Shown here: positions 1 through 12,617 of the stretch, in pieces
Position numbering within the stretch: position 1 is the first letter of the stretch
How the letters are laid out: each line of letters opens with the position of its first letter
DNA from: Planctomycetota bacterium
Lineage (GTDB): Bacteria; Planctomycetota; Planctomycetia; Gemmatales; Gemmataceae
Direction: 5' to 3'
NCBI GenBank assembly: GCA_021807595.1
Contig: JAKBCS010000027.1
Span: 1 to 45,885 of the forward strand
DNA: 45,885 nt
Program-made: the position numbers and the translations under genes
The notes under the pieces: model-generated
What the model was told of the DNA's origin: nothing
The model's database searches: none
What the model saw: only the letters and a program-made list of their open reading frames with translations

Positions 1-90
1 CCAGGACATCGAGCCGCACTAAGTCGGCGGCGCGGTAGCCGAGGAAATCGTAGTCCATCGTGCCGTAACCGTGCGTCACCGATTCTAAGT
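1..90 (-). pseudogene. Fragment of a second lepA allele
   Basis: Bases 1-84 match the intact lepA at 4388-4471 with only two differences. Both fall in one codon (CTG in the intact gene, TTA here) and are synonymous for Leu. Read on the minus strand, the fragment encodes LepA residues 461-489. The next two codons toward the 5' side are still recognisable (Leu kept, Lys462 changed to Glu), and all similarity stops at about base 90. The fragment runs off the left window edge, so its 3' extent is unknown. Synonymous change indicates a related allele that evolved under selection, not a fresh copy. The lepA 5' part is missing here, so it is called a gene remnant created by insertion or duplication. 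Confidence 0.85.
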
Positions 91-325
91 GAACAAAAGA
101 ATATATTGAACCCAATCGACCTTGACCAATTTGGCGATTTTGCGTTGAAGGTCGCCCAGCCAACTCACAGCTGGCTACCGACCTTGACAACTTTGGAGAA
201 TCAGTTGGCAATCCGCCGACTTGATCGGTTACCATAGCGAGAGATATTCTGAAAGAAGTCTCCATACTAACGCCGGGAAAACAGGGAATGGTCGGGCGAG
301 GTATGTGCGGAACGCGGAGGAACCC
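91..325. promoter_or_regulatory. Upstream region of the AAA/protease cassette with imperfect 21-nt direct repeats
   Basis: This 235-base region is visibly more AT-rich than the rest of the window. It contains two direct repeats, 117-137 and 179-199, matching at 18 of 21 positions and both starting CGACCTTGAC. Their start-to-start distance of 62 bases (about six helical turns) would suit a dimeric regulator, but that is inference. A TTGACA hexamer lies at 184-189, but no good -10 follows at 16-18 bases. A reading frame open from TTG 221 crosses here. I prefer the later GTG start at 326, which has a Shine-Dalgarno sequence. Confidence 0.45.
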
Positions 326-1330
326 GTGGCGACAGGTGAACAATTAAAAGCACTGTTGAAGAGCCACGCGGCTGGGGATAACGACCTCTTCCGATCCGTG
401 GCGTTACAGGTCGCTGCCCATGAGGCGACGAGGGGGAACGAACGTCTCGCGATGGAGCTTCGCGAATTGATTGATAAGGTTAAGCGCGCGCAGCAACCCG
501 TCGGCAGCCCCCGGGCACTCCCCATCGCCCGTCCGTCCGGGGAACTGGCTGGCCTGGTGCTGGCGTCTTATCCCTCGTTGCGGCTCTGCGACATGGTTCT
601 GGCGGACCCAATCCGGTCGCGGCTTACGGAGATCGTTCGCCAGCAGCGACAACGCGATCTTCTGCGCTCGCATGGCCTCTCCCCGAAACGGAAACTGCTG
701 CTCGTGGGGCCGCCGGGCTGTGGCAAGACGATGACCGCATCGGTACTCGCCAGTGAGTGCGAGATGCCCTTGCTATTCGTGCAACTTCACAGCCTTATCA
801 GTAGGTACATGGGCGAAACCGCGGCAAAGCTGCATTTGATCTTTGATGCGATGAGTACGACGCGCGGGGTTTATCTTTTCGACGAGTTCGATGCCATCGG
901 CGCGGCCCGCGCGGCCGGGAACGATGTCGGTGAGATTCGCCGCGTCCTTAATTCATTCCTACTGTTCCTTGAGCGGGATGACTCCGAGAGCCCGATCGTC
1001 GCGGCCACGAATTTCGTGGGCATGCTCGATGACGCGCTCTTCCGCCGGTTCGACGAGGTAATCGCCTATAACTTGCCGGACAAGAAACTTGTTAAAAGGC
1101 TTATCGAAAATCGACTGAACATTTTTGATCTGAGTGCGTTAAAATGGGGAGACGTTTGTATCGCGGCGCGCGGTCTTAGTCATGCTGAAGTCGCCCGTGC
1201 CTGCGACGACGCGGCTCGCAGCGCCGTCCTCTCCAGTGAGAGGGCGATCACGAATGAAAGTCTGACTCACTCTCTCAACAACCGCAGCGGTATGCGTCCT
1301 TCTCGACGAGGAAAGAGACAACAAGAATGA
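326..1330 (+). CDS. AAA+ ATPase of a two-gene ATPase/subtilase cassette
   Basis: The product is about 334 residues from GTG 326, which has GGAGG at 316-320 with 5-base spacing. The frame also opens at TTG 221, but that adds 35 residues with no Shine-Dalgarno. AAA+ motifs are clear (numbering from GTG): Walker A GPPGCGKT at 128-135, Walker B YLFDEF near 183-188, sensor-1 Asn in AATN near 229, and an RRFD arginine-finger motif near 240. The N-terminal 90 residues are helical, a likely partner- or substrate-binding segment. The stop overlaps the next gene's start in ATGA, so the two proteins are probably translationally coupled and work together. By analogy with AAA+ partners of proteases, it may remodel a substrate or gate the protease. 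The pairing recalls ATPase/S8-protease modules found sporadically on islands and plasmids. A conflict or defence role is inference. Confidence 0.88.
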   Translation: MATGEQLKALLKSHAAGDNDLFRSVALQVAAHEATRGNERLAMELRELIDKVKRAQQPVGSPRALPIARPSGELAGLVLASYPSLRLCDMVLADPIRSRLTEIVRQQRQRDLLRSHGLSPKRKLLLVGPPGCGKTMTASVLASECEMPLLFVQLHSLISRYMGETAAKLHLIFDAMSTTRGVYLFDEFDAIGAARAAGNDVGEIRRVLNSFLLFLERDDSESPIVAATNFVGMLDDALFRRFDEVIAYNLPDKKLVKRLIENRLNIFDLSALKWGDVCIAARGLSHAEVARACDDAARSAVLSSERAITNESLTHSLNNRSGMRPSRRGKRQQE

Positions 1331-4014
1331 GCGATCTGCCCCATCTTCGGATTCCGGGAACCCAAGAGACCGAAAAATACACTTATGCGGGAAGGACGCC
1401 TCAAGGTGTCGTCTTCAATCTCCCACCCAGGAACAAGTCGGCTCATGCAATCGAGGTTCGGAGTGAATTACAGGGTGCGCAGACGCAGGCGGTCAAGCAA
1501 CGAACCGCAAACCGGCAGCAATATCCCGACCTCGTGCAATGGGAGCCCGAAGGCGTCGTTCTCACCTTCCACAGCGACCAGGATTTCGAGTTGCCGCTGG
1601 AAAAGCTGGAGCGAAAAGGGAGCGGAATTTATCTTCTTAGTTTGAATGAGGAGAACGGCGCTCAGGTCGCAAAAGTTTTCGTCCCCGAAGGTCGCCTCGG
1701 CCAGTTCCTTCATCTGGTGAACGCCTACGCGAACAGCGTTCTACTTACCTTCGAGGCGGATGAGGACAAAGAGCAACAACTGAAGGATCGCGCCGATCCC
1801 GACAACGGCATTAAGTTGAACGGCCAAGTTCACAAAATAGATAACAAGGTTAGGATCGCGTTTCTTGTTCTCGAAGCGAAAGAGGCTGCTTTCACCGCCT
1901 CCGTCGGCGAGCTCGCTACCCTCGTCAAGACGGGCCGTAAGAACGAAAAGCTCATTGAGAGCATCTCCTCCGTCCGGCTCGCGCTCATCCAGGATTTTTG
2001 GCAGGACAGCCTACCGTTCCCCGCCTTGGACCAAGAGATGTGGTGGGAAATTTGGCTGCGCGGCACGCGAGCCACCGCTGAAACAGTTCACGCTCGTTTC
2101 AGAGATTTGGCGAAGATCGTCGGCATCACGAAGGTAAGTGATCGGTTCGTCGCTTTCCCCGAACGGGTGGTCGTCCATGCCTACGCTTCGGCGAACCGAT
2201 TGACGGCATCGATTGATGTGCTTACCCTGTTCGCAGAGCTTCGGAAGGCAAAGGAGCTTGCTACTTATTACGTCGACCTTGAGCCGCGCGAGCAAGGGGA
2301 GTTTATCGAAGATGCTGTCGGTCGGCTCGAACTCCCCGGCCCCAACGCGCCCTGTGTAACGATCCTCGACGGCGGAGTGAATCGGATGCACCCCCTCTTG
2401 GAACCGGGACTCGCCGAGGAGGATATGCACACCGCTGATCCCGAATGGGGGTTCGCCGATAGTTCCAACAATCAACACGGCACGGGCATGGCGGGCATTG
2501 GGCTTTACGGTTGCCTCACCGAGATTATGACGGAGACGGGGGAGATTATCCTTCAACACAAGCTGGAGTCGGTGAAGATTTTGCCTCCTCCGCCCTTGGT
2601 GAATAGCCCACCCGACTACGGCCGAGTAATGCAGGACGGCGTTCTGTTGGCGCATATCAAATCCCCGCAAAGGAAGCGAGTCCTGTGCATGGCTGTGACA
2701 GCCGACGACCGCGACATGGGGTTGCCGACGCTATGGTCAGGTGCGGTGGATGATCTCTGCGCGGGTGTGCTGGACGAGACACCGAAGCTCATGTTCATTT
2801 CCGCCGGGAATGTGAGAGAACATTTACATTCGGATGAATACACCTACCACACTTGGAACACGACGAAGGCGGGTATCGAAGATCCCGCGCAGGCGTGGAA
2901 TGCGCTCACGGTCGGAGCGATCACCGAGAAGGTCATGATCCAAGACGAGGATTTCAACGGATGGCAACCGATAGCCGAGTGCGGCGATTTGTGTCCGACC
3001 AGCCGGACCTCGCTCCCCTGGCCCTCCGAGAACCAGAAGGGCTGGCCCATCAAACCCGACATCGTCATGGAGGGCGGGAACTACGCACAGATTGGCGCGA
3101 ACGAAAGATCGAGTACCGACGACCTCTCTTTGCTGACGACGATCCTACACCAAAGCGGACGGTTGTTTGACACGACGAGAGACACGAGTCCCGCGACGGC
3201 GTTGGCAGCACGCTTTGCGGCTCTCATCTGGAGCCGTTACCCGAAACTCTGGCCGGAGACAATACGGGCACTGATGGTCCATTCGGCGACCTGGAACGAT
3301 CGGATGATCGCTCGTTTCCCCGGCAACTCGAAAGTAGCCGCTCACAATCGCCTTCGCTGCTACGGTTACGGCGTTCCAAATCTTCACCGGGCGTTGAATA
3401 GCGCGGAAAACGCCGTCACTCTCACGTTCGAGGGGGAACTTCAGCCTTTTCAAAAGATAAATTCAAAAGGCAAGACTTTCGAGATGCATCTGCATCAGTT
3501 GCCCTGGCCGATCATTGTTCTTGAGGCGCTCGGCGAGGCAAAGGTGACGATGAGAGTCACGCTTTCCTACTTCATCGAGCCAAGCCCGAACAGCGTCGGT
3601 TGGGGGGTAAATCACCGCTACGCTTCGCACGGTCTGCGGTTTGACGTCATCCGTCCGACCGAGGAAATTGAAGGTTTCAAGCGTCGCATTTCCAGAGATT
3701 TCTGGGAGGCACCGAACAAGCGGCCAGAGAACCCGGCGGAGGAAACGCGCAATTGGGTCATCGGCGATCAACGTCGAACACACGGTTCCATTCACTCTGA
3801 CTGGTGGGTCGGTAGTGCCGTTGAGCTAGCGAACTGCGGCCGTATCGTCGTCTACCCCGTCACAGGTTGGTGGAAGGAGCGGCTTCATTTGCAGCGATAC
3901 GACAGCAAGGCGCGTTATAGCATGATCGTGTCGCTCGATTCGGAGAACGTCGAAGTGGACCTTTATACACCCATTTCGCAGATGGTGAACGTCGAAACCG
4001 AGATCATGGAGTAA
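1327..4014 (+). CDS. Large cytoplasmic subtilisin-like (S8) serine protease
   Basis: The protein has 895 residues and no signal peptide, unlike classical secreted subtilases, so it should act in the cytoplasm. The triad can be placed: Asp348 in ILDGGV, His384 in HGTGMAG, and Ser621 in DTSPATALAARFAA, with the oxyanion Asn495 in SAGN. About 340 residues precede the catalytic domain; they look alpha/beta, lack recognisable motifs, and could be a regulatory or sensor domain. About 230 residues follow it, probably beta-rich. The architecture resembles the Y4bN-like S8 subfamily, as far as can be judged by eye. It overlaps the upstream AAA+ gene by 4 bases. The substrate is unknown. All catalytic residues are present, so an active enzyme is expected. 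Its stop lies 41 bases from the convergent lepA stop. Confidence 0.9.
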   Translation: MSDLPHLRIPGTQETEKYTYAGRTPQGVVFNLPPRNKSAHAIEVRSELQGAQTQAVKQRTANRQQYPDLVQWEPEGVVLTFHSDQDFELPLEKLERKGSGIYLLSLNEENGAQVAKVFVPEGRLGQFLHLVNAYANSVLLTFEADEDKEQQLKDRADPDNGIKLNGQVHKIDNKVRIAFLVLEAKEAAFTASVGELATLVKTGRKNEKLIESISSVRLALIQDFWQDSLPFPALDQEMWWEIWLRGTRATAETVHARFRDLAKIVGITKVSDRFVAFPERVVVHAYASANRLTASIDVLTLFAELRKAKELATYYVDLEPREQGEFIEDAVGRLELPGPNAPCVTILDGGVNRMHPLLEPGLAEEDMHTADPEWGFADSSNNQHGTGMAGIGLYGCLTEIMTETGEIILQHKLESVKILPPPPLVNSPPDYGRVMQDGVLLAHIKSPQRKRVLCMAVTADDRDMGLPTLWSGAVDDLCAGVLDETPKLMFISAGNVREHLHSDEYTYHTWNTTKAGIEDPAQAWNALTVGAITEKVMIQDEDFNGWQPIAECGDLCPTSRTSLPWPSENQKGWPIKPDIVMEGGNYAQIGANERSSTDDLSLLTTILHQSGRLFDTTRDTSPATALAARFAALIWSRYPKLWPETIRALMVHSATWNDRMIARFPGNSKVAAHNRLRCYGYGVPNLHRALNSAENAVTLTFEGELQPFQKINSKGKTFEMHLHQLPWPIIVLEALGEAKVTMRVTLSYFIEPSPNSVGWGVNHRYASHGLRFDVIRPTEEIEGFKRRISRDFWEAPNKRPENPAEETRNWVIGDQRRTHGSIHSDWWVGSAVELANCGRIVVYPVTGWWKERLHLQRYDSKARYSMIVSLDSENVEVDLYTPISQMVNVETEIME

Positions 4015-4055
4015 ATCGGTCGATTTTTTCCAAGGCAAGCATCGTCCGCGATGAG

Positions 4056-5855
<1,800 letters not shown>

Positions 5856-6411
5856 GGGTGTTCGTATACTCTCCTCGCAACGGTCGGTAAGCCATCCGTT
5901 GTGCTTCTCAGAAAGCATACCAGCAAAGGCGCGAACTGGATAGGGGAGACGGTCGAGACTCGCCCTCCGCGCGCGTGTCGGCGATCCACGCGGGTAACGG
6001 GCGCACGGCGACACCGACCGGAGTCTGCCCGCGATCGATCTCCGAGTCGGCCAAACACGCGGTCGCTTGCGAGGTCAAGTTGCCTTTTTCACTTCCATCG
6101 CCGTTACTTTTGCTATAATGATTGCGACAACCAGAAGGATAGTGTTGACCCCTCGAAGATTCGGCGGGACGACAGGATTATGCGGCCGTCCGGAAAAGAC
6201 AATTCGCCTCAACCGGAAGCCGTTGTCGGCGATCGCTGGGATTTTTACGACCTCTGTATCTCTGTTGGCCTTTTCTCGTTACGACGGCTCCGGGCCAAGG
6301 CGCGGCTCCGCTCTGGACAACGCGGCTGGATTCGGTGACTTGCGTACACTATGTTGATGTTTCGGTGCGGCGAAGAAAAGCGCGTCGGGGCGAACGACGA
6401 GGTGACGGCGG
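5856..6411. other. 556-base divergent intergenic region between lepA and the TPR gene
   Basis: No convincing gene is visible here. The region holds an extended -10 promoter (6111-6119, plus). Two short plus-strand frames follow it: GTG 6142 to 6357 (71 codons) and ATG 6180 to 6338 (52 codons). Neither has a recognisable product, and the second has only a poor ribosome site, so I treat the stretch as a long leader of the gene at 6412. Confidence 0.5.
6111..6119 (+). promoter_or_regulatory. Extended -10 promoter candidate TGCTATAAT
   Basis: TGCTATAAT is a perfect extended -10 (TGnTATAAT), which can work without a good -35. No TTGACA-like hexamer sits at the right distance. Transcription would start near 6126 and run toward the TPR gene at 6412, giving a leader of about 285 bases. 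Confidence 0.5.
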
Positions 6412-7710
6412 ATGCGTCGATTTTTACTCACTTTAGCGGCGCTGATGATTGCAGGTTCCCTGCGCGCCGGCGTGTACAATCTCGATCCGCCGCGCAAGTT
6501 TTCCAGCGATTACGTTGAAACCCATTTGGCTCAGCCGCTGCAAATGGCGATGCTCTATCTCGACGAACTGCGTGCCATACACGATTTGGCCGTCAATCCC
6601 AACGATCCGCCCAAACCGAACTCGCTACGCATTTCTTACGAGAAGCAACTCGCTCGACTTGCAATCGCGGAGAAAACCGGCGAACTAACGGGCGTCGATC
6701 GCGTCAACCTGAGCGCTTGTCTTATCCGCATGGGACGTTATCCCGCGGCGCAGCAAGTGCTGGAAGAAGGGTTGCGCGTGGTGCCGACCGGCGAGCCGAC
6801 TCGCGTTCTGCTGTTGCTCAACTTGGCCTCGATTTATCAGGAAGACGAGAACCTGATGCAGCGCGGCCTGCAAATGCAGCGCGAGGCGTTGGCCGCTTGG
6901 CCGCCGCTCTTGCTCGCGTGGACGCGGCAGGAATCCGAATGGTATCGCCACGTCGAAGAGTATACGCTCGCTCTGATGGAAATTCGCAATGCTGAGACGA
7001 TCCGTCACGGAGGCCGCCCGCAGCACGAGCAACCCTCGCCCGATCTGCTGTTTCCGCGCGAGGAGCGCGATCCGGCCAAGAAAGTGCGATTCGTTGGACT
7101 CGATGGCGAGTACGAAGCCGGCAGCATCGCCTGGAAAGAATGGGATCGGCTGCCCACCGACGCCGAGCAGGTTGTGCTACAGCTTCTCCTGTGGCGTCCG
7201 CACGACGCGCGCCTGCTGTGGCAATTCGGCGAGTTGCTTAACGCACGCGGCATGGTCGATTGGGCTTACTCAATCCTGAATGTCCGCGTGCGCGACAACA
7301 GCCGCTACCGCAACCGCGAACTGGATCGACACATCCAGGTATTAAACGCGGCAGAGAAGGTTTACAAATTGCTGTTCGCCGACGGTGCCGGTTCGGGGGA
7401 GAATCTCCGAGCGCAAGCGCTGTTGTTGGGATTGGTCGCGCCCCGTGGCGCGACTTTGATGCCGGCCGCAGCAGCTGTGGCGAACGAGACCGGCTTTGCG
7501 GCGTCGGCATCTTTTGCCGGTGTCCCTTTCGTCCAAGCAGCCCCGCCGTCAGCGCCCAACGCTCCCGCTTCCGCATCCGGCCTGGTTCTGCCGGATTGGC
7601 GACAATTGGCCGTCAGTTTCGTGACGGGGATCGTGGTCGCGGTCTTGGGTGTGTTGCAATGGCAACAATGGCGACGCTCTCGCTCGGTCCACGGCGAACC
7701 GGCGTCGTAA
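6412..7710 (+). CDS. Exported, membrane-anchored TPR-repeat protein
   Basis: The protein has 432 residues. An N-terminal signal peptide (cleavage expected after SLRAG) is followed by a helical region with TPR-like pairs between about residues 85 and 175, where phrases such as GRYPAAQQVLEEGLRVVP fit the TPR pattern. A low-complexity Ala/Pro stretch precedes one C-terminal transmembrane helix (LAVSFVTGIVVAVLGVL) and a short basic tail ending in RRSRS. The protein should therefore lie mostly outside the cytoplasm, anchored at its C terminus. It probably scaffolds protein-protein contacts; no catalytic motif is visible. Proteins of this layout are common in planctomycetes, and the exact role is unknown. 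RimB and RimK genes follow on the same strand. Confidence 0.75.
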   Translation: MRRFLLTLAALMIAGSLRAGVYNLDPPRKFSSDYVETHLAQPLQMAMLYLDELRAIHDLAVNPNDPPKPNSLRISYEKQLARLAIAEKTGELTGVDRVNLSACLIRMGRYPAAQQVLEEGLRVVPTGEPTRVLLLLNLASIYQEDENLMQRGLQMQREALAAWPPLLLAWTRQESEWYRHVEEYTLALMEIRNAETIRHGGRPQHEQPSPDLLFPREERDPAKKVRFVGLDGEYEAGSIAWKEWDRLPTDAEQVVLQLLLWRPHDARLLWQFGELLNARGMVDWAYSILNVRVRDNSRYRNRELDRHIQVLNAAEKVYKLLFADGAGSGENLRAQALLLGLVAPRGATLMPAAAAVANETGFAASASFAGVPFVQAAPPSAPNAPASASGLVLPDWRQLAVSFVTGIVVAVLGVLQWQQWRRSRSVHGEPAS

Positions 7711-7781
7711 GCCGCCGAATCTTCGCCAGCGCGTGGCAGTTGACGCTGCCGGTTCGCCCGATTCAAAAGGAGATAGCCGAC

Positions 7782-8267
7782 ATGCTGGAACCGTCTCTCC
7801 AAGCGTCCGAGATCGCCTTGCCGACTCGTCAGCCGCTCCGCGTCGGCTGGAAAGAGTATCTCCAGTTCACCGAATGGAATCTGCACCACATTCGCGTGAA
7901 GATCGACACGGGGGCGCGCACCTCGGCGCTCGATGTGGTTCGCTACGAACTGTTTGAAACGGCGACGGGCCAAGCGATGGCGACGTTGCTTCTCGCTCTG
8001 GATCGACGGCATCCCGGTCGATTCACGCGCATCCAAACGCCCGTACTACGAACCGTGATGGTCCGCAACACCGGCGGGAAGCACGAGGAACGGCCGGTCG
8101 TGGAGACGGCGGTACGCATCGGTCCGATCCACAAACGCATCCGCATCACGCTGGCCAATCGTTCGAGCATGCGCTATCGCATGATCTTGGGACGCGAAGC
8201 GTTGAACGACGATTTTGTGGTGGACGTGAGCCGCCGCTATGTGCTGAAAAACTGGTCGACGGAATAG
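7782..8267 (+). CDS. rimB: RimB-like retropepsin-type aspartic protease (PF05618 family)
   Basis: The protein has 161 residues from ATG 7782, with AAAGGAGA about 8 bases upstream; the longer frame upstream is a shadow of the TPR gene. The IDTGARTSAL segment near residues 40-50 carries the DTGA active-site loop of the family long annotated as an ATP-dependent zinc protease but resembling retropepsins. A second conserved block, ILGREAL, lies near the C terminus. In the known RimABK system, RimB trims glutamate tails that RimK adds to ribosomal protein S6. The gene directly precedes rimK (45 bases apart, same strand), which supports this role. The motif call is strong. The substrate in this organism is inferred. 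Confidence 0.85.
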   Translation: MLEPSLQASEIALPTRQPLRVGWKEYLQFTEWNLHHIRVKIDTGARTSALDVVRYELFETATGQAMATLLLALDRRHPGRFTRIQTPVLRTVMVRNTGGKHEERPVVETAVRIGPIHKRIRITLANRSSMRYRMILGREALNDDFVVDVSRRYVLKNWSTE

Positions 8268-8312
8268 TCTACCCGCATCCATGCGGATCGATTGGCTGGA
8301 GAGGAGGATTCC

Positions 8313-9248
8313 ATGCGCATTGTCATTCTGTCGCGCCGCGAGGAGCTATACAGCACCCGCGCATTGTTCTCGGCGGCGTTGGAACGGGGCCACGACGCGC
8401 GCGTTCTCGATACGTTGCAATTCGACATTCGCGTTAGTCGCCGCAATCCCGAACTCTTGTACAAGGGCGAGCCGATTGGGCCGGTCGACGCGGTGATCCC
8501 ACGCATCGGCGCGTCGATCACGCACTTTGGACTCGCCGTCGTCCGTCAATTCGAGATGATGGGCGTCTATTGTCTCAACGAATCGCAAGCCATCGCCCGT
8601 TCGCGCGATAAGCTCCGCTGTCTCCAATTGCTCAGCCGACACGACATCGGTTTGCCTCCGACGGTATACACGCGCCAAGCGGACCACGTTCCCGACTGCA
8701 TCGAGCGCGTAGAGGGGCCGCCGGTCGTGGTCAAACTGCTTCAAGGCACACAAGGCATAGGCGTGGTTCTCGCGGAAACCACCGTGGCCGCTCATTCCGT
8801 GATCGAGGCGTTCCACGGCTTAGAGCAAAACATTCTGATTCAGCAGTTTATCAAAGAAGCTGGAGGGGCCGACATTCGGGCGTTGGTCGTGGGACGGCGC
8901 GTGGTGGCATCCATGAAGCGACAAGCTGTGGCTGGGGAGTTTCGATCCAACATTCATCGCGGCGGCACGTCCAAAAAGGTGCGCTTGAGTGCCGAATCGC
9001 GCCGCACCGCATTGGCGGCGGCGCGCTGTTTAGGACTCACCGTGGCGGGTGTCGATCTCATCGAGTCCGATGAGGGGCCGATGGTGATGGAGGTCAATTC
9101 TTCTCCGGGTTTGGAAGGCATCGAAAGAACCACCGGCGTGGACGTGGCGGGAGCTATCGTCGAGTACATCGAGTCGGAGGTGCGCAACCCCAAGCACGAC
9201 ATCCGAAAAAACGGCGAGAGGAAGGCAAGCAAAACCAAATCCCACTAA
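8313..9248 (+). CDS. rimK: RimK, ATP-grasp glutamate ligase for ribosomal protein S6
   Basis: The protein has 311 residues starting [10 protein letters not shown], with a strong GAGGAGG at 8301-8307. The ATP-grasp fold is evident: an N-terminal domain of about 90 residues, the ATP-binding stretch around [14 protein letters not shown], and the metal-binding [12 protein letters not shown] near residues 260-272. RimK adds glutamates to the C terminus of S6, altering ribosomes. Related ligases act on other acceptors, such as lysine biosynthesis carrier proteins (LysX) or coenzyme F420, but the rimB partner and the N-terminal sequence favour RimK. No RimA-type gene is visible nearby. Confidence 0.9.
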
Positions 9249-9307
9249 GACCGTCCTCTCCTCCTCCGTACTCAGAAGGATGAAGGGACTGAGATCGGCG
9301 TCCTCCC

Positions 9308-9344
9308 AACCCCCTCTTCCCCGATTTTTCGGGCGAGAGGGGAG
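9308..9344. repeat. Intergenic inverted repeat, GGGGAGAGGGG family, copy 1
   Basis: The arms CCCCCTCTTCCCCG (9310-9323) and CGGGCGAGAGGGG (9330-9342) form a near-perfect hairpin with a T-rich loop. Read on the minus strand it contains GGGGAAGAGGGGGTTGGGAGGA, which resembles the copy at 40800-40818. It lies between convergent rimK and the EF-hand gene and could also end transcription, but no clear T-run follows. Confidence 0.5.
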
Positions 9345-9441
9345 AAACCCAGTGCAGCACTGTGCCGTTCCTTGGGCGATCGGAATTCATCTGCGCGGGA
9401 CGCTTCACCAACTTCGCGCGGCCTCTTTTCGTGTTCCCCCA

Positions 9442-11235
9442 TCATCTCTTCCGCAGTGCCTCATCGGCGCGGCGCGCTTCGTCCAGACTGATAAGTCCAT
9501 CGCCGTCCGTGTCCATGCTTCGGAAGTCGTCGCGGCTACCGAGGAACTCGCGCTGCGAAATGTCGCCGTCGCCGTTGCGATCCATCTTGCGAAACCAGAG
9601 GGGACCGCGGCGCGGCACGACGGCGACTGGCTCCATGCCGGCGGGCGGTTGCACTCCTCCGAGTTGCCCGGTGCGAAAGTTCGGCGCTCCGGGATTGAGA
9701 ACGATTTCATATTGCAGTGGGATTTCTTCGCGCCGAATGGCCCCATCGTTGTCGCGGTCGTAGGTTGCCACGCGCTGCCACGCGCTGCGCATCTCACGGA
9801 GACCGAGACGGCCATCGCGGTCTCCGTCGAGAAGTTGAAACAAACCGCGACCGCTCGCCGTCATGGCCACGCTCACTTGGCAATTCAATCCGCTGCTCGT
9901 CAGATCGAGCCAGGCGTTCAGCTCGTCCAGATCGAGGCATTCGTCGCCGTTGTTGTCCGCCACAAAAAGGATGGCGTTCAGGTTATAAAACTGCGCCGTT
10001 GGCAGTTGCTTCTTACTGAGGAACCCTCTGCCCTTTTGATCGATGGTCTTAAACTGTCGGATCAGAACGTCGCGCGCTGCCTGCCCGGCTGCAACGGGAA
10101 CACTCTCGGCCGCGATGAGAGTGACCGAGTGATCCAACGTCGAATAGGCCAAACTGTTGACGCTCCGCTTGATGAGGGCGGGATTGCGGTCGTCTCTCGT
10201 GGAAATAGGGTCGATTTTATCTTGTATACGGCCGAGGCGAACCTCGATCTCCGCATTCGGCGAAAGGACGATCCAGCGGAGCAGTTCGATAACGTCCAAC
10301 GAGTTGTCTTTGTCTCGGTCGAGTCGGTCGAAGTCTTTCTTGCTCATGCCGATTTCGTCGCGGCTGAGATGTTTATCCTTGTTCTTGTCGTATCGCTGTA
10401 AGACTTCGCGGGCGACAGGAAGGCGCGCGTTGAGTCGTCTCGGTCCATCCTCGCGCGGCACGAGCATCAAGGGGATGGCGGGGGTCTGCATCGCGGGGAC
10501 AGGTTTTTGGTTCGGAGTGGGGGCAGCCGGAGCGGGTTGAGGGACGGCGGTCTGCAATTCCGCAATCGACAGCATTTCGTCGTCATCGACATCGAACTTG
10601 TGCAAGATTTTCTCGGTGTCGTCCAGTTCGGCGCGTGAAAGTTTGCCGTCCTTATTCTTGTCCAGCAGCGAGTAGAGAAGATCGGTAAGGGCGTTCTGCG
10701 ACACGCCTTGAACGGGTTGATTGAACGGGGACACGATTTGAATGGGCCCAGCCTGCGACGCGCGATAGTAGCGAAGAAACTCGTCGAGGGAGACGCGCTT
10801 GTCGCGATCGCGGTCGAAATCTTCGAGGGGCGGGCCGTCGCGCAGAGCGTAAGCGTAGGGATTGCTCAGGAGATTCAACAGCAAGTGCGGAGCCGGAGCG
10901 CGGGCGATCTCCTTGCCGTCGAGAAAACCGTCCGCGTCGCCGTCGAGAAAGCGAAACCAGCGCGTCACATATTCGTTCCAACGCAGCGGATACGGTTTGC
11001 CGTCGACGAGAACTCGCAAACGGATCAGCACGGGGCCGCTCTCGTGAAAGAACAGAACGTCCTGAACCTCCTCGGCAGTACCGGGATCGGCCGATTTTGC
11101 CTCGTTCTTGCCCCTTTTCGTCTCTCCGTCGAGAGAGCGCGCGGCGACAAAGGGACAAGGGGACGCGATGAGGACGACGGCAAGCACGGTCGTCGCCCCG
11201 ATGCGGAAAAACCGCGCGATTGCGTTGCTACTCAT
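9442..11235 (-). CDS. Exported multi-EF-hand protein (about 11 EF-hand loops)
   Basis: The protein has 597 residues. A signal peptide covers roughly residues 1-33. About eleven EF-hand-type 12-residue loops follow, recognisable as DxDxDG cores: for example DGDADGFLDGKE near 98, DKNKDGKLSRAE, DVDDDEMLSIAE, DNNGDECLDLDE, DGDRDGRLGLRE, DRNGDGDISQRE and DTDGDGLISLDE near the C terminus. Between the middle loops lies a Pro/Ala-rich linker (around PAPAAPTPNQKPVP). Some loops, such as DRDKRVSLDE, lack a ligand and may not bind calcium. It should be a periplasmic or surface calcium-binding protein. It stands upstream-facing next to the DUF1501/DUF1549 pair, only 35 bases from the DUF1501 stop, so they may share a transcript. 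Confidence 0.85.
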   Translation of the reverse strand: MSSNAIARFFRIGATTVLAVVLIASPCPFVAARSLDGETKRGKNEAKSADPGTAEEVQDVLFFHESGPVLIRLRVLVDGKPYPLRWNEYVTRWFRFLDGDADGFLDGKEIARAPAPHLLLNLLSNPYAYALRDGPPLEDFDRDRDKRVSLDEFLRYYRASQAGPIQIVSPFNQPVQGVSQNALTDLLYSLLDKNKDGKLSRAELDDTEKILHKFDVDDDEMLSIAELQTAVPQPAPAAPTPNQKPVPAMQTPAIPLMLVPREDGPRRLNARLPVAREVLQRYDKNKDKHLSRDEIGMSKKDFDRLDRDKDNSLDVIELLRWIVLSPNAEIEVRLGRIQDKIDPISTRDDRNPALIKRSVNSLAYSTLDHSVTLIAAESVPVAAGQAARDVLIRQFKTIDQKGRGFLSKKQLPTAQFYNLNAILFVADNNGDECLDLDELNAWLDLTSSGLNCQVSVAMTASGRGLFQLLDGDRDGRLGLREMRSAWQRVATYDRDNDGAIRREEIPLQYEIVLNPGAPNFRTGQLGGVQPPAGMEPVAVVPRRGPLWFRKMDRNGDGDISQREFLGSRDDFRSMDTDGDGLISLDEARRADEALRKR

Positions 11236-11270
11236 CTGCTCACCTCGTCGCTTCGTCGCCCGAAGACGTT

Positions 11271-12617
11271 TTACAATAGGATTTCCTTAATCGGTTGAGC
11301 GGCCTTGTCGGCGATGCGAATGGGCCGGCCGACGTTGGAGTTGTTTTGCTTGAGCGGGTCGATGCCCAAAGCGAGACAAATGGTAGCCAAGAAGTCGCTG
11401 ACGGTGGTGGGGCGCGTCTCGACCTTGGTTCCATCGGCGCTGGTCTTGCCGTGGGCTTGGCCTCCTTTGATGCCGCCGCCGGCCAAGACGGTACTCCAGG
11501 CGTTGGGGAAGTGGTCGCGTCCCTGCCCGCCGTTGATTTTCGGCGTGCGGCCAAACTCGCCCATCCACACGATCAACGTCGAATCGAGCAGACCGCGCAC
11601 GGACAGGTCTTCCATCAAAGTGCCCCATGCGGGATCGAGAATTTCGCTGAGTTTGCGCACGGCCTGGAAATTCTGTTGGTGCGAGTCCCAGTTGAAGAAC
11701 ATGTTGTTCTCCCGGAGTCCGGCCAACGACACTTCGATGAATGGCACGCCGCGTTCGACGAGCCGACGAGCCAAGAGGCAGCCTTGGCCGAACAGGTTTC
11801 GCCCATACCGGTCGCGCAATTTGGGAGACTCTTCGTGCAGATTGAACGCCTTGTTGGCATCGGTGCGCATCAGCTTGACGGCGCGATCGTAGGCCGTCCG
11901 ATGGCTGAGCGGCGCGACGCCGGGATGATCGGCGAGGAAATCGCCTTCCATTTCTTGCAGCAGATCGATGCGCGCCTCGGCGTGGGCGCGGTTGACGCCG
12001 TTCGGCAAGTCGATGTCCTGCACCTTCAGCGCTTGCTCGTATGTGCCGTCTTGATTCTGGAAGAACGAATTGTTATCGCCGACGATTAAGGGAGCATATT
12101 GAGGTCCGAGAAATCCGGGACCATACGCCGCGGAGTTGAAGAATCGCGCCGGCGCGATGCTGACGAAGTTCGGCAGGGGAGCATCGTCGCTTCCCAACTC
12201 TTTGGCGACGAGCGATCCGAGAGACGGATACTGGATCGGACCAGTCGGTTGATAGCCGGTGCGCAACAGGAACGTGGCGCGACCGTGTTCGCCCTCTTTG
12301 GTACTCATGGAACGCACCACGGCCATGCGATCGCCGAACTTTGCCAATTGCGGCAAGTGTTCGCTGATGCGCAAGTCCGGCGACGAGGTGCGGATTTCTT
12401 TGAAAGGCCCGCCGTTGGCGTGCCCCGGCTTCAAGTCGAACGTATCCATTTGACTGGGGCCGCCGGTCATCCACAAGAGGATGCACGAACGTTTGCGCGT
12501 GGGATGCTGGGCGACATCGGCGGCCAGCGTTTCGAGCCAACCGGACATCGAATACCCCGTGACTCCGGCGGCGGTCAGGCGCAGCCAATCGCGCCGCGAC
12601 AATCGTGGAAGCTTCAT
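11271..12617 (-). CDS. DUF1501 family protein (copy 1)
   Basis: The protein has 448 residues. The N-terminus (SRRDWLRLTAAGVTGYSM) is a twin-arginine-type signal, so folded export is likely. The body matches DUF1501: CILLWMTGGPSQMDTFDLKP early on, and VWMGEFGRTPKINGGQGRDH and VLAGGGIKGGQ later. DUF1501 proteins have an alkaline-phosphatase/sulfatase-like fold in which these Asp, Glu and His residues would sit at the metal site, but no reaction has been established. In planctomycetes the gene is nearly always adjacent to a DUF1549/DUF1553 gene, as here (the start lies 93 bases downstream of that gene's stop). A second pair occurs at 24881-27795. Confidence 0.92.
   Translation of the reverse strand: MKLPRLSRRDWLRLTAAGVTGYSMSGWLETLAADVAQHPTRKRSCILLWMTGGPSQMDTFDLKPGHANGGPFKEIRTSSPDLRISEHLPQLAKFGDRMAVVRSMSTKEGEHGRATFLLRTGYQPTGPIQYPSLGSLVAKELGSDDAPLPNFVSIAPARFFNSAAYGPGFLGPQYAPLIVGDNNSFFQNQDGTYEQALKVQDIDLPNGVNRAHAEARIDLLQEMEGDFLADHPGVAPLSHRTAYDRAVKLMRTDANKAFNLHEESPKLRDRYGRNLFGQGCLLARRLVERGVPFIEVSLAGLRENNMFFNWDSHQQNFQAVRKLSEILDPAWGTLMEDLSVRGLLDSTLIVWMGEFGRTPKINGGQGRDHFPNAWSTVLAGGGIKGGQAHGKTSADGTKVETRPTTVSDFLATICLALGIDPLKQNNSNVGRPIRIADKAAQPIKEILL

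What the first reader, a model, noticed from the sequence alone, without database searches (positions are those of the whole stretch)
326..4014. Tightly coupled AAA+ ATPase and cytoplasmic S8 protease as a candidate defence or toxin-like system
Seen: ATGA overlap, complete Walker A/B, sensor and arginine-finger motifs, and a complete catalytic triad (Asp348, His384, Ser621) in a protein with no export signal. The cassette is AT-richer than its surroundings at the start and lies at an insertion boundary. Known: ATPase/S8-protease pairs occur sporadically in accessory regions. Inference: the ATPase senses or unfolds a target and licenses proteolysis, for example in abortive infection or plasmid conflict. 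The 340-residue N-terminal region of the protease is unassigned and could be the sensor.
Basis: partly seen in the sequence, partly recalled or inferred. Interest (0 to 1): 0.68.

Follow-up and report, generated by a model that had tools for sequence, protein, structure and literature searches.

The report
A planctomycete IetAS defence toxin–antitoxin pair
The two genes are a planctomycete copy of the known IetAS system, in which a protein-cutting toxin is held in check by a partner ATPase and helps keep plasmids and block phages; it is a new member of a described family rather than a new kind of system.

Summary
The pair is a full-length IetAS. The ATPase is 52% and the protease 39% identical to IetA and IetS of the Agrobacterium Ti plasmid pTiC58, the founding pair. 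PADLOC names both genes IetA and IetS. IetA lies directly upstream of IetS in 134 of 135 related loci that had room to show it. The catalytic triad, the oxyanion Asn and the Walker/arginine-finger residues are invariant in 91 homologues. Published work on relatives shows the protease is toxic and the ATPase is its antitoxin, so the ATPase restrains proteolysis rather than "licensing" it. Distribution is patchy (8 of 58 relatives), and neighbours elsewhere include restriction-modification, defence RT, AbiEi, integrase and relaxase genes. One local oddity: the cassette lies between intact lepA and an 84-bp copy of lepA's interior at the contig end, which looks like an insertion scar. How IetS is released during infection remains unknown.

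The parts
85..325 (+). AT-richer leader of ietA (50% GC), presumed promoter region; holds an imperfect 21-nt direct repeat (117-137 / 179-199, 86%)
   Evidence: promoter function not shown (one search finds no sigma-70-like match here on the + strand)
326..1330 (+). ietA: classic-clade AAA+ ATPase, presumed antitoxin; N-terminal three-helix bundle (residues 4-56), AAA core and C-terminal lid; pore loop K/R-F/Y-M/L-G-E
   Evidence: PADLOC IetA 4.5e-68; 52% identical to pTiC58 IetA; A4 conservation; AlphaFold2 pLDDT 89.5, nearest folds PAN/Rpt/FtsH
1327..4014 (+). ietS: cytoplasmic S8 (subtilisin-type) protease, presumed toxin; Asp348/His384/Asn495/Ser621
   Evidence: Pfam Peptidase_S8 2.5e-46; PADLOC IetS 3e-29; 39% identical to pTiC58 IetS over residues 4-884; AlphaFold2 pLDDT 90.2, subtilisin folds in PDB
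1741..1938 (+). approx. residues 139-204 of IetS: extra N-terminal segment; among the 91 aligned sequences present only in the window and two planctomycete ones (also in L052)
4056..6014 (-). lepA (elongation factor 4), intact housekeeping gene converging on ietS; not part of the system; marks the right boundary of the cassette
   Evidence: synteny with sister genome G003 covers 4039-6925
1..84 (-). fragment of lepA (codons ~542-511), 98% identical direct repeat of 4388-4471, running off the contig end: probable insertion scar left of the cassette

Best explanation
326-4014 is an IetAS module, the toxin-antitoxin and anti-phage system first found on the Agrobacterium Ti plasmid. IetS is a cytoplasmic subtilisin-type protease that is toxic when unrestrained. 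IetA, a PAN/Vps4-like AAA+ ATPase made from the gene just upstream, binds IetS and keeps it harmless, most likely as a ring that uses ATP to remodel or occlude it. When phage infection, an incoming competing element, or loss of the module upsets IetA (inhibition, titration or faster decay), IetS is freed and cuts cell proteins, stopping growth before the invader spreads. Shown here: gene pair, intact active sites, full-length family membership, conserved pairing, patchy distribution. Shown by others in relatives: IetS toxicity, IetA neutralisation, plasmid or island stabilisation, phage defence. Inferred: IetA-IetS contact, the ring, the trigger, and that this planctomycete copy is active.
For: Full-length identity to pTiC58 IetA (52%) and IetS (39%), closer than the experimentally tested SGI1 pair is to pTiC58 (50% and 36%; PMC5006074). 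PADLOC IetA/IetS hits. IetA immediately upstream on the same strand in 134 of 135 loci with room. D348/H384/N495/S621 of IetS and K134/D186/E187/N229/R240/R241 of IetA invariant in 91 homologues. Models: subtilisin fold and PAN/FtsH-type AAA fold. Aromatic pore loop kept in all 91, so IetA looks like an active threading ATPase. Patchy presence: 8 of 58 relatives; of three congeners two lack it and the third has a divergent ~30% copy. Found on 482 plasmid records, 337 typed conjugative, and on 53 viral-collection contigs. Neighbours elsewhere: type I/III restriction-modification, DndB, Prok-E2, UG36 defence RT, AbiEi, integrase, relaxase, none of which appears among the top families of lepA-flank controls. 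Literature: toxicity and neutralisation in E. coli and mycoplasma; association with phage resistance.
Against: No direct test of this pair. NCBIfam equivalog cut-offs are not reached (IteA 196 of 510 bits, IteS 56 of 900), so it lies outside the narrow equivalogs. The immediate neighbourhood in this genome is housekeeping (lepA), not a defence island, although the left side is missing. An IetA that only neutralises does not obviously need a conserved threading pore loop.
Confidence: 0.8

Rival explanations
1. Same genes, opposite logic: IetA is an unfoldase that recognises phage or plasmid proteins and feeds them to IetS, which is inactive or harmless alone, as in FtsH- or PAN-proteasome-like machines.
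For: IetA has a conserved aromatic pore loop and its nearest folds are PAN, Rpt and FtsH, all protease-coupled unfoldases.
Against: In SGI1 and mycoplasma relatives the protease alone kills and the ATPase protects (PMC5006074, PMC8562856). Deleting only the ATPase was lethal in JCVI-syn2.0 while deleting both was viable.
Confidence: 0.12
2. A selfish stabilisation (addiction) cassette without a defence role here: a toxin-antitoxin pair kept because its loss kills the cell, carried in by a mobile element and now chromosomal.
For: pTiC58 and SGI1 pairs stabilise their elements; many homologues on conjugative plasmids; lepA repeat at the left end suggests insertion.
Against: Phage resistance attributed to family members and defence-gene neighbours in other genomes. 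The two roles are compatible.
Confidence: 0.2
3. Cellular protein quality control: an ATP-dependent protease with a housekeeping role.
For: AAA+ plus protease architecture in the cytoplasm.
Against: Absent from 50 of 58 relatives; neighbours not conserved; lepA is not next to ietAS in any other locus examined; phylum labels change 20 times on the IetS tree where 8 would be the minimum.
Confidence: 0.03

Closest known systems
ietA/ietS of the Agrobacterium fabrum C58 Ti plasmid (NC_003065, ATU_RS23410/ATU_RS23415; Yamamoto et al. 2009, J Bacteriol 191:4656, known here through citing papers)
   Same: Gene order, close spacing, all catalytic residues; 52% and 39% identity over essentially the whole of both proteins
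   Different: Ti plasmid rather than a chromosomal contig; pTiC58 IetS lacks the extra ~65-residue N-terminal segment (139-204)
sgiA/sgiT (S026/S025) of Salmonella Genomic Island 1 (PMC5006074)
   Same: AAA antitoxin plus S8 protease toxin in one operon on a mobile element that integrates at the 3' end of a conserved gene (trmE)
   Different: Here no integrase is visible; the cassette lies beside lepA and the left flank is missing
Mycoplasma TA132/3 (MMCAP2_0132/0133; PMC8562856)
   Same: AAA-ATPase antitoxin and subtilisin-like protease toxin; flanking direct repeats reported
   Different: Shorter protease (757 aa); identity to the window pair was not measured
PADLOC/NCBIfam anti-phage IetAS (IteA/IteS)
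   Same: Both genes hit the models (4.5e-68 and 3e-29 in PADLOC)
   Different: Well below the NCBIfam equivalog cut-offs, i.e. outside that narrow subgroup

Membership tests
IetAS | AAA+ ATPase gene immediately upstream of an S8 protease gene, same strand, overlapping or nearly so | tested here: met
   ATGA overlap 1327-1330; same arrangement in 134 of 135 homologous loci with room
IetAS | Full-length homology of both proteins to a characterised IetA/IetS pair | tested here: met
   52% over 325 and 39% over 893 columns against pTiC58
IetAS | Intact S8 catalytic residues in IetS and Walker/sensor/arginine-finger residues in IetA | tested here: met
IetAS | Accessory, patchy distribution on mobile or variable DNA | tested here: met
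   8 of 58 relatives; 482 plasmid records; viral-collection contigs
IetAS | IetS toxic alone and neutralised by IetA | not testable with these tools
   Shown for relatives only
IetAS | Protection against phage or competing plasmid | not testable with these tools
   Literature on relatives only
NCBIfam IteA/IteS equivalogs (narrow sense) | Score above the curated equivalog cut-off | tested here: not met
   196 of 510 bits and 56 of 900 bits; so a family member, not an equivalog of the reference pair
ATP-dependent housekeeping protease (FtsH/Lon/Clp-like) | Conserved presence and operon context across relatives | tested here: not met

The most novel reading that the evidence does not exclude
The ietAS cassette entered this genome by recombination at the 3' end of lepA, on DNA that carried its own lepA 3' end, so that the host gene was rebuilt on one side and a truncated lepA fragment was left on the other. 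That would make lepA an integration site for defence modules in this planctomycete lineage, parallel to SGI1 at trmE.
Probability: 0.2. Interest if true: 0.35.

Novelty: new member of a known kind. Interest (0 to 1): 0.15.

Why it matters
It adds a clean planctomycete member to IetAS and gives a 91-sequence alignment with confident models of both proteins. These point to conserved residues (IetA pore loop; IetS WWEVWL/FPER/ELR segment just before the protease domain) that could be mutated to ask the family's open question: how the ATPase holds the protease back and what releases it. It does not change what is known about defence systems.

Tried and rejected
A single-sequence scan of genome contigs found nothing; the profile scan found 494 relatives, of which the best 80 were kept. 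Solved-structure search by sequence found no IetAS structure, only generic subtilisins and p97/CDC48-type ATPases. Promoter/terminator scan uninformative. PADLOC hits in lepA-flank controls were protein kinases matching PD-T4-6 and similar models, i.e. not evidence of defence, so single-model PADLOC hits were not counted as such. I looked for lepA next to other ietAS loci and found none, which rejects a conserved lepA-ietAS linkage. I tried to find the left flank: the genes that follow lepA in sister G003 lie on contig C146 of this genome, whose end overlaps contig C94 by exactly 127 bases (an assembler k-mer). C94 carries unrelated genes and no lepA or ietAS, so it does not close the gap. The founding 2009 paper is not in the library. 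Housekeeping protease and 'uncharacterised new system' were considered and rejected.

Full report
WHAT IS THERE. The pair is real. The ATPase gene runs 326-1330 (GTG start, GGAGG six bases upstream) and the protease gene 1327-4014, overlapping by ATGA. The longest open frame in 200 shuffles of this stretch was 368 codons. Neither protein has a signal peptide or membrane span by hydropathy. The GC dip is confined mainly to the leader at 85-330 (50% against 60%).

WHAT IT IS. PADLOC identifies the genes as IetA (4.5e-68) and IetS (3e-29). A protein search of plasmids hits the Agrobacterium Ti plasmid pTiC58 over residues 4-894 of the protease. Pairwise, the ATPase is 52% and the protease 39% identical to that pair. 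This is the founding IetAS locus, described as a toxin-antitoxin system (Yamamoto et al. 2009, cited; the paper itself is not held). The pair here is closer to pTiC58 than is the SGI1 pair, whose toxin/antitoxin behaviour was demonstrated (50% and 36%; PMC5006074).

THE FAMILY. A profile search gave 80 loci from public genomes (of 494 relatives) and 53 from viral contigs. Together with relatives and two plasmids, 140 loci had an IetS frame; in 134 of the 135 with room upstream, an IetA frame lies before it on the same strand. A few of these have larger apparent gaps because of frameshifts or start choice. In 91 aligned pairs the four IetS active-site residues and the key IetA Walker, sensor and arginine-finger residues never vary, and the IetA pore loop keeps an aromatic residue in every row.

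STRUCTURE. AlphaFold2 with these alignments gives mean pLDDT 90.2 for IetS and 89.5 for IetA. IetS matches subtilisins, pro-subtilisins and related proteases; IetA matches PAN, 26S Rpt subunits and FtsH. Residues 205-340 are conserved family-wide. Within them, 238-307 has a strand-helix-strand-strand-helix-strand order, which to my knowledge is also the topology of subtilisin propeptides; Pfam finds no propeptide domain there, so this likeness is only a suggestion. Residues 139-204 are an extra segment shared with a few planctomycete sequences only.

DISTRIBUTION. Eight of 58 related genomes have IetS; of three congeners, two lack it and the third has only a divergent copy (about 30% identical). 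On the IetS tree the window groups with planctomycete sequences (3 rows at support 100, 11 rows at 97), while phyla are interleaved elsewhere (20 label changes, minimum 8). Other ietAS loci have neighbours such as type I and III restriction-modification, DndB, Prok-E2, integrase and relaxase proteins, and in single cases a UG36 defence reverse transcriptase and AbiEi. Control flanks of lepA in 23 related genomes show signal peptidase, thioesterase and other housekeeping families. The comparison is qualitative: control and test taxa differ and thresholds were not identical.

THE LOCAL INSERTION. To the right is intact lepA. The closest sister genome G003 (LepA 97% identical) is collinear with the window from 4039 to 6925, where its contig ends; left of 4039 it diverges, and it has no IetS. 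The first 84 bases of the window repeat lepA 4388-4471 (98%; the 62 bases next to the junction are identical), in the same orientation, and run off the contig. The cassette therefore lies between intact lepA and a lepA fragment. That fits integration of DNA carrying its own lepA 3' end, or a partial duplication. Comparison of four congeneric genomes shows that lepA's downstream side is a breakpoint in this genus. No recombinase is visible and the left flank is not assembled, so the mechanism is open and an assembly fault cannot be excluded.

HOW IT WORKS. In SGI1 and mycoplasma relatives the protease alone is toxic and the ATPase neutralises it (PMC5006074, PMC8562856). IetAS is associated with phage resistance, with the mechanism stated as unknown (PMC11878078, PMC9958689). 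I therefore take IetA as the restraint and IetS as the effector, released when IetA fails. The conserved pore loop suggests that IetA is an active threading ATPase, so an unfoldase role remains possible; whether it acts on IetS or on other proteins is the open question.

VERDICT. A well-formed new member of a known system.

Noticed in passing
window 1-84 and 4388-4471: 84-bp direct repeat of lepA codons ~542-511 flanking the ietAS cassette, 62 bp identical next to the junction; runs off the contig end
   Followed up: partly
G000 contigs C146 end / C94 end (L210, L211) versus sister G003 (L060): lepA's downstream neighbours differ among four congeneric genomes; two contig ends of this genome overlap by exactly 127 bp, an assembler k-mer, showing C146 continues into C94
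   Followed up: partly
window 117-137 and 179-199: imperfect 21-nt direct repeat (CGACCTTGACcAaTTTGGcGA) in the ietA leader, a possible operator or promoter element
   Followed up: no
window 9442-11235 (-): 597-aa protein made largely of EF-hand calcium-binding repeats
   Followed up: no
window 7260-9248 (+): ATP-dependent zinc-protease-domain protein (PF05618) directly followed by a RimK-like ATP-grasp ligase
   Followed up: no
L058 (G054) 5665-11477: divergent ietAS (IetS about 25% identical) placed next to a UG36-type defence reverse transcriptase
   Followed up: partly
L196 (pTiC58) 4144-4737: the gene just upstream of ietA on the Ti plasmid (DUF6088) scores as AbiEi, an abortive-infection antitoxin
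   Followed up: no
L057 (G035): ietS split into two frames, apparently a decayed copy of the pair
   Followed up: no
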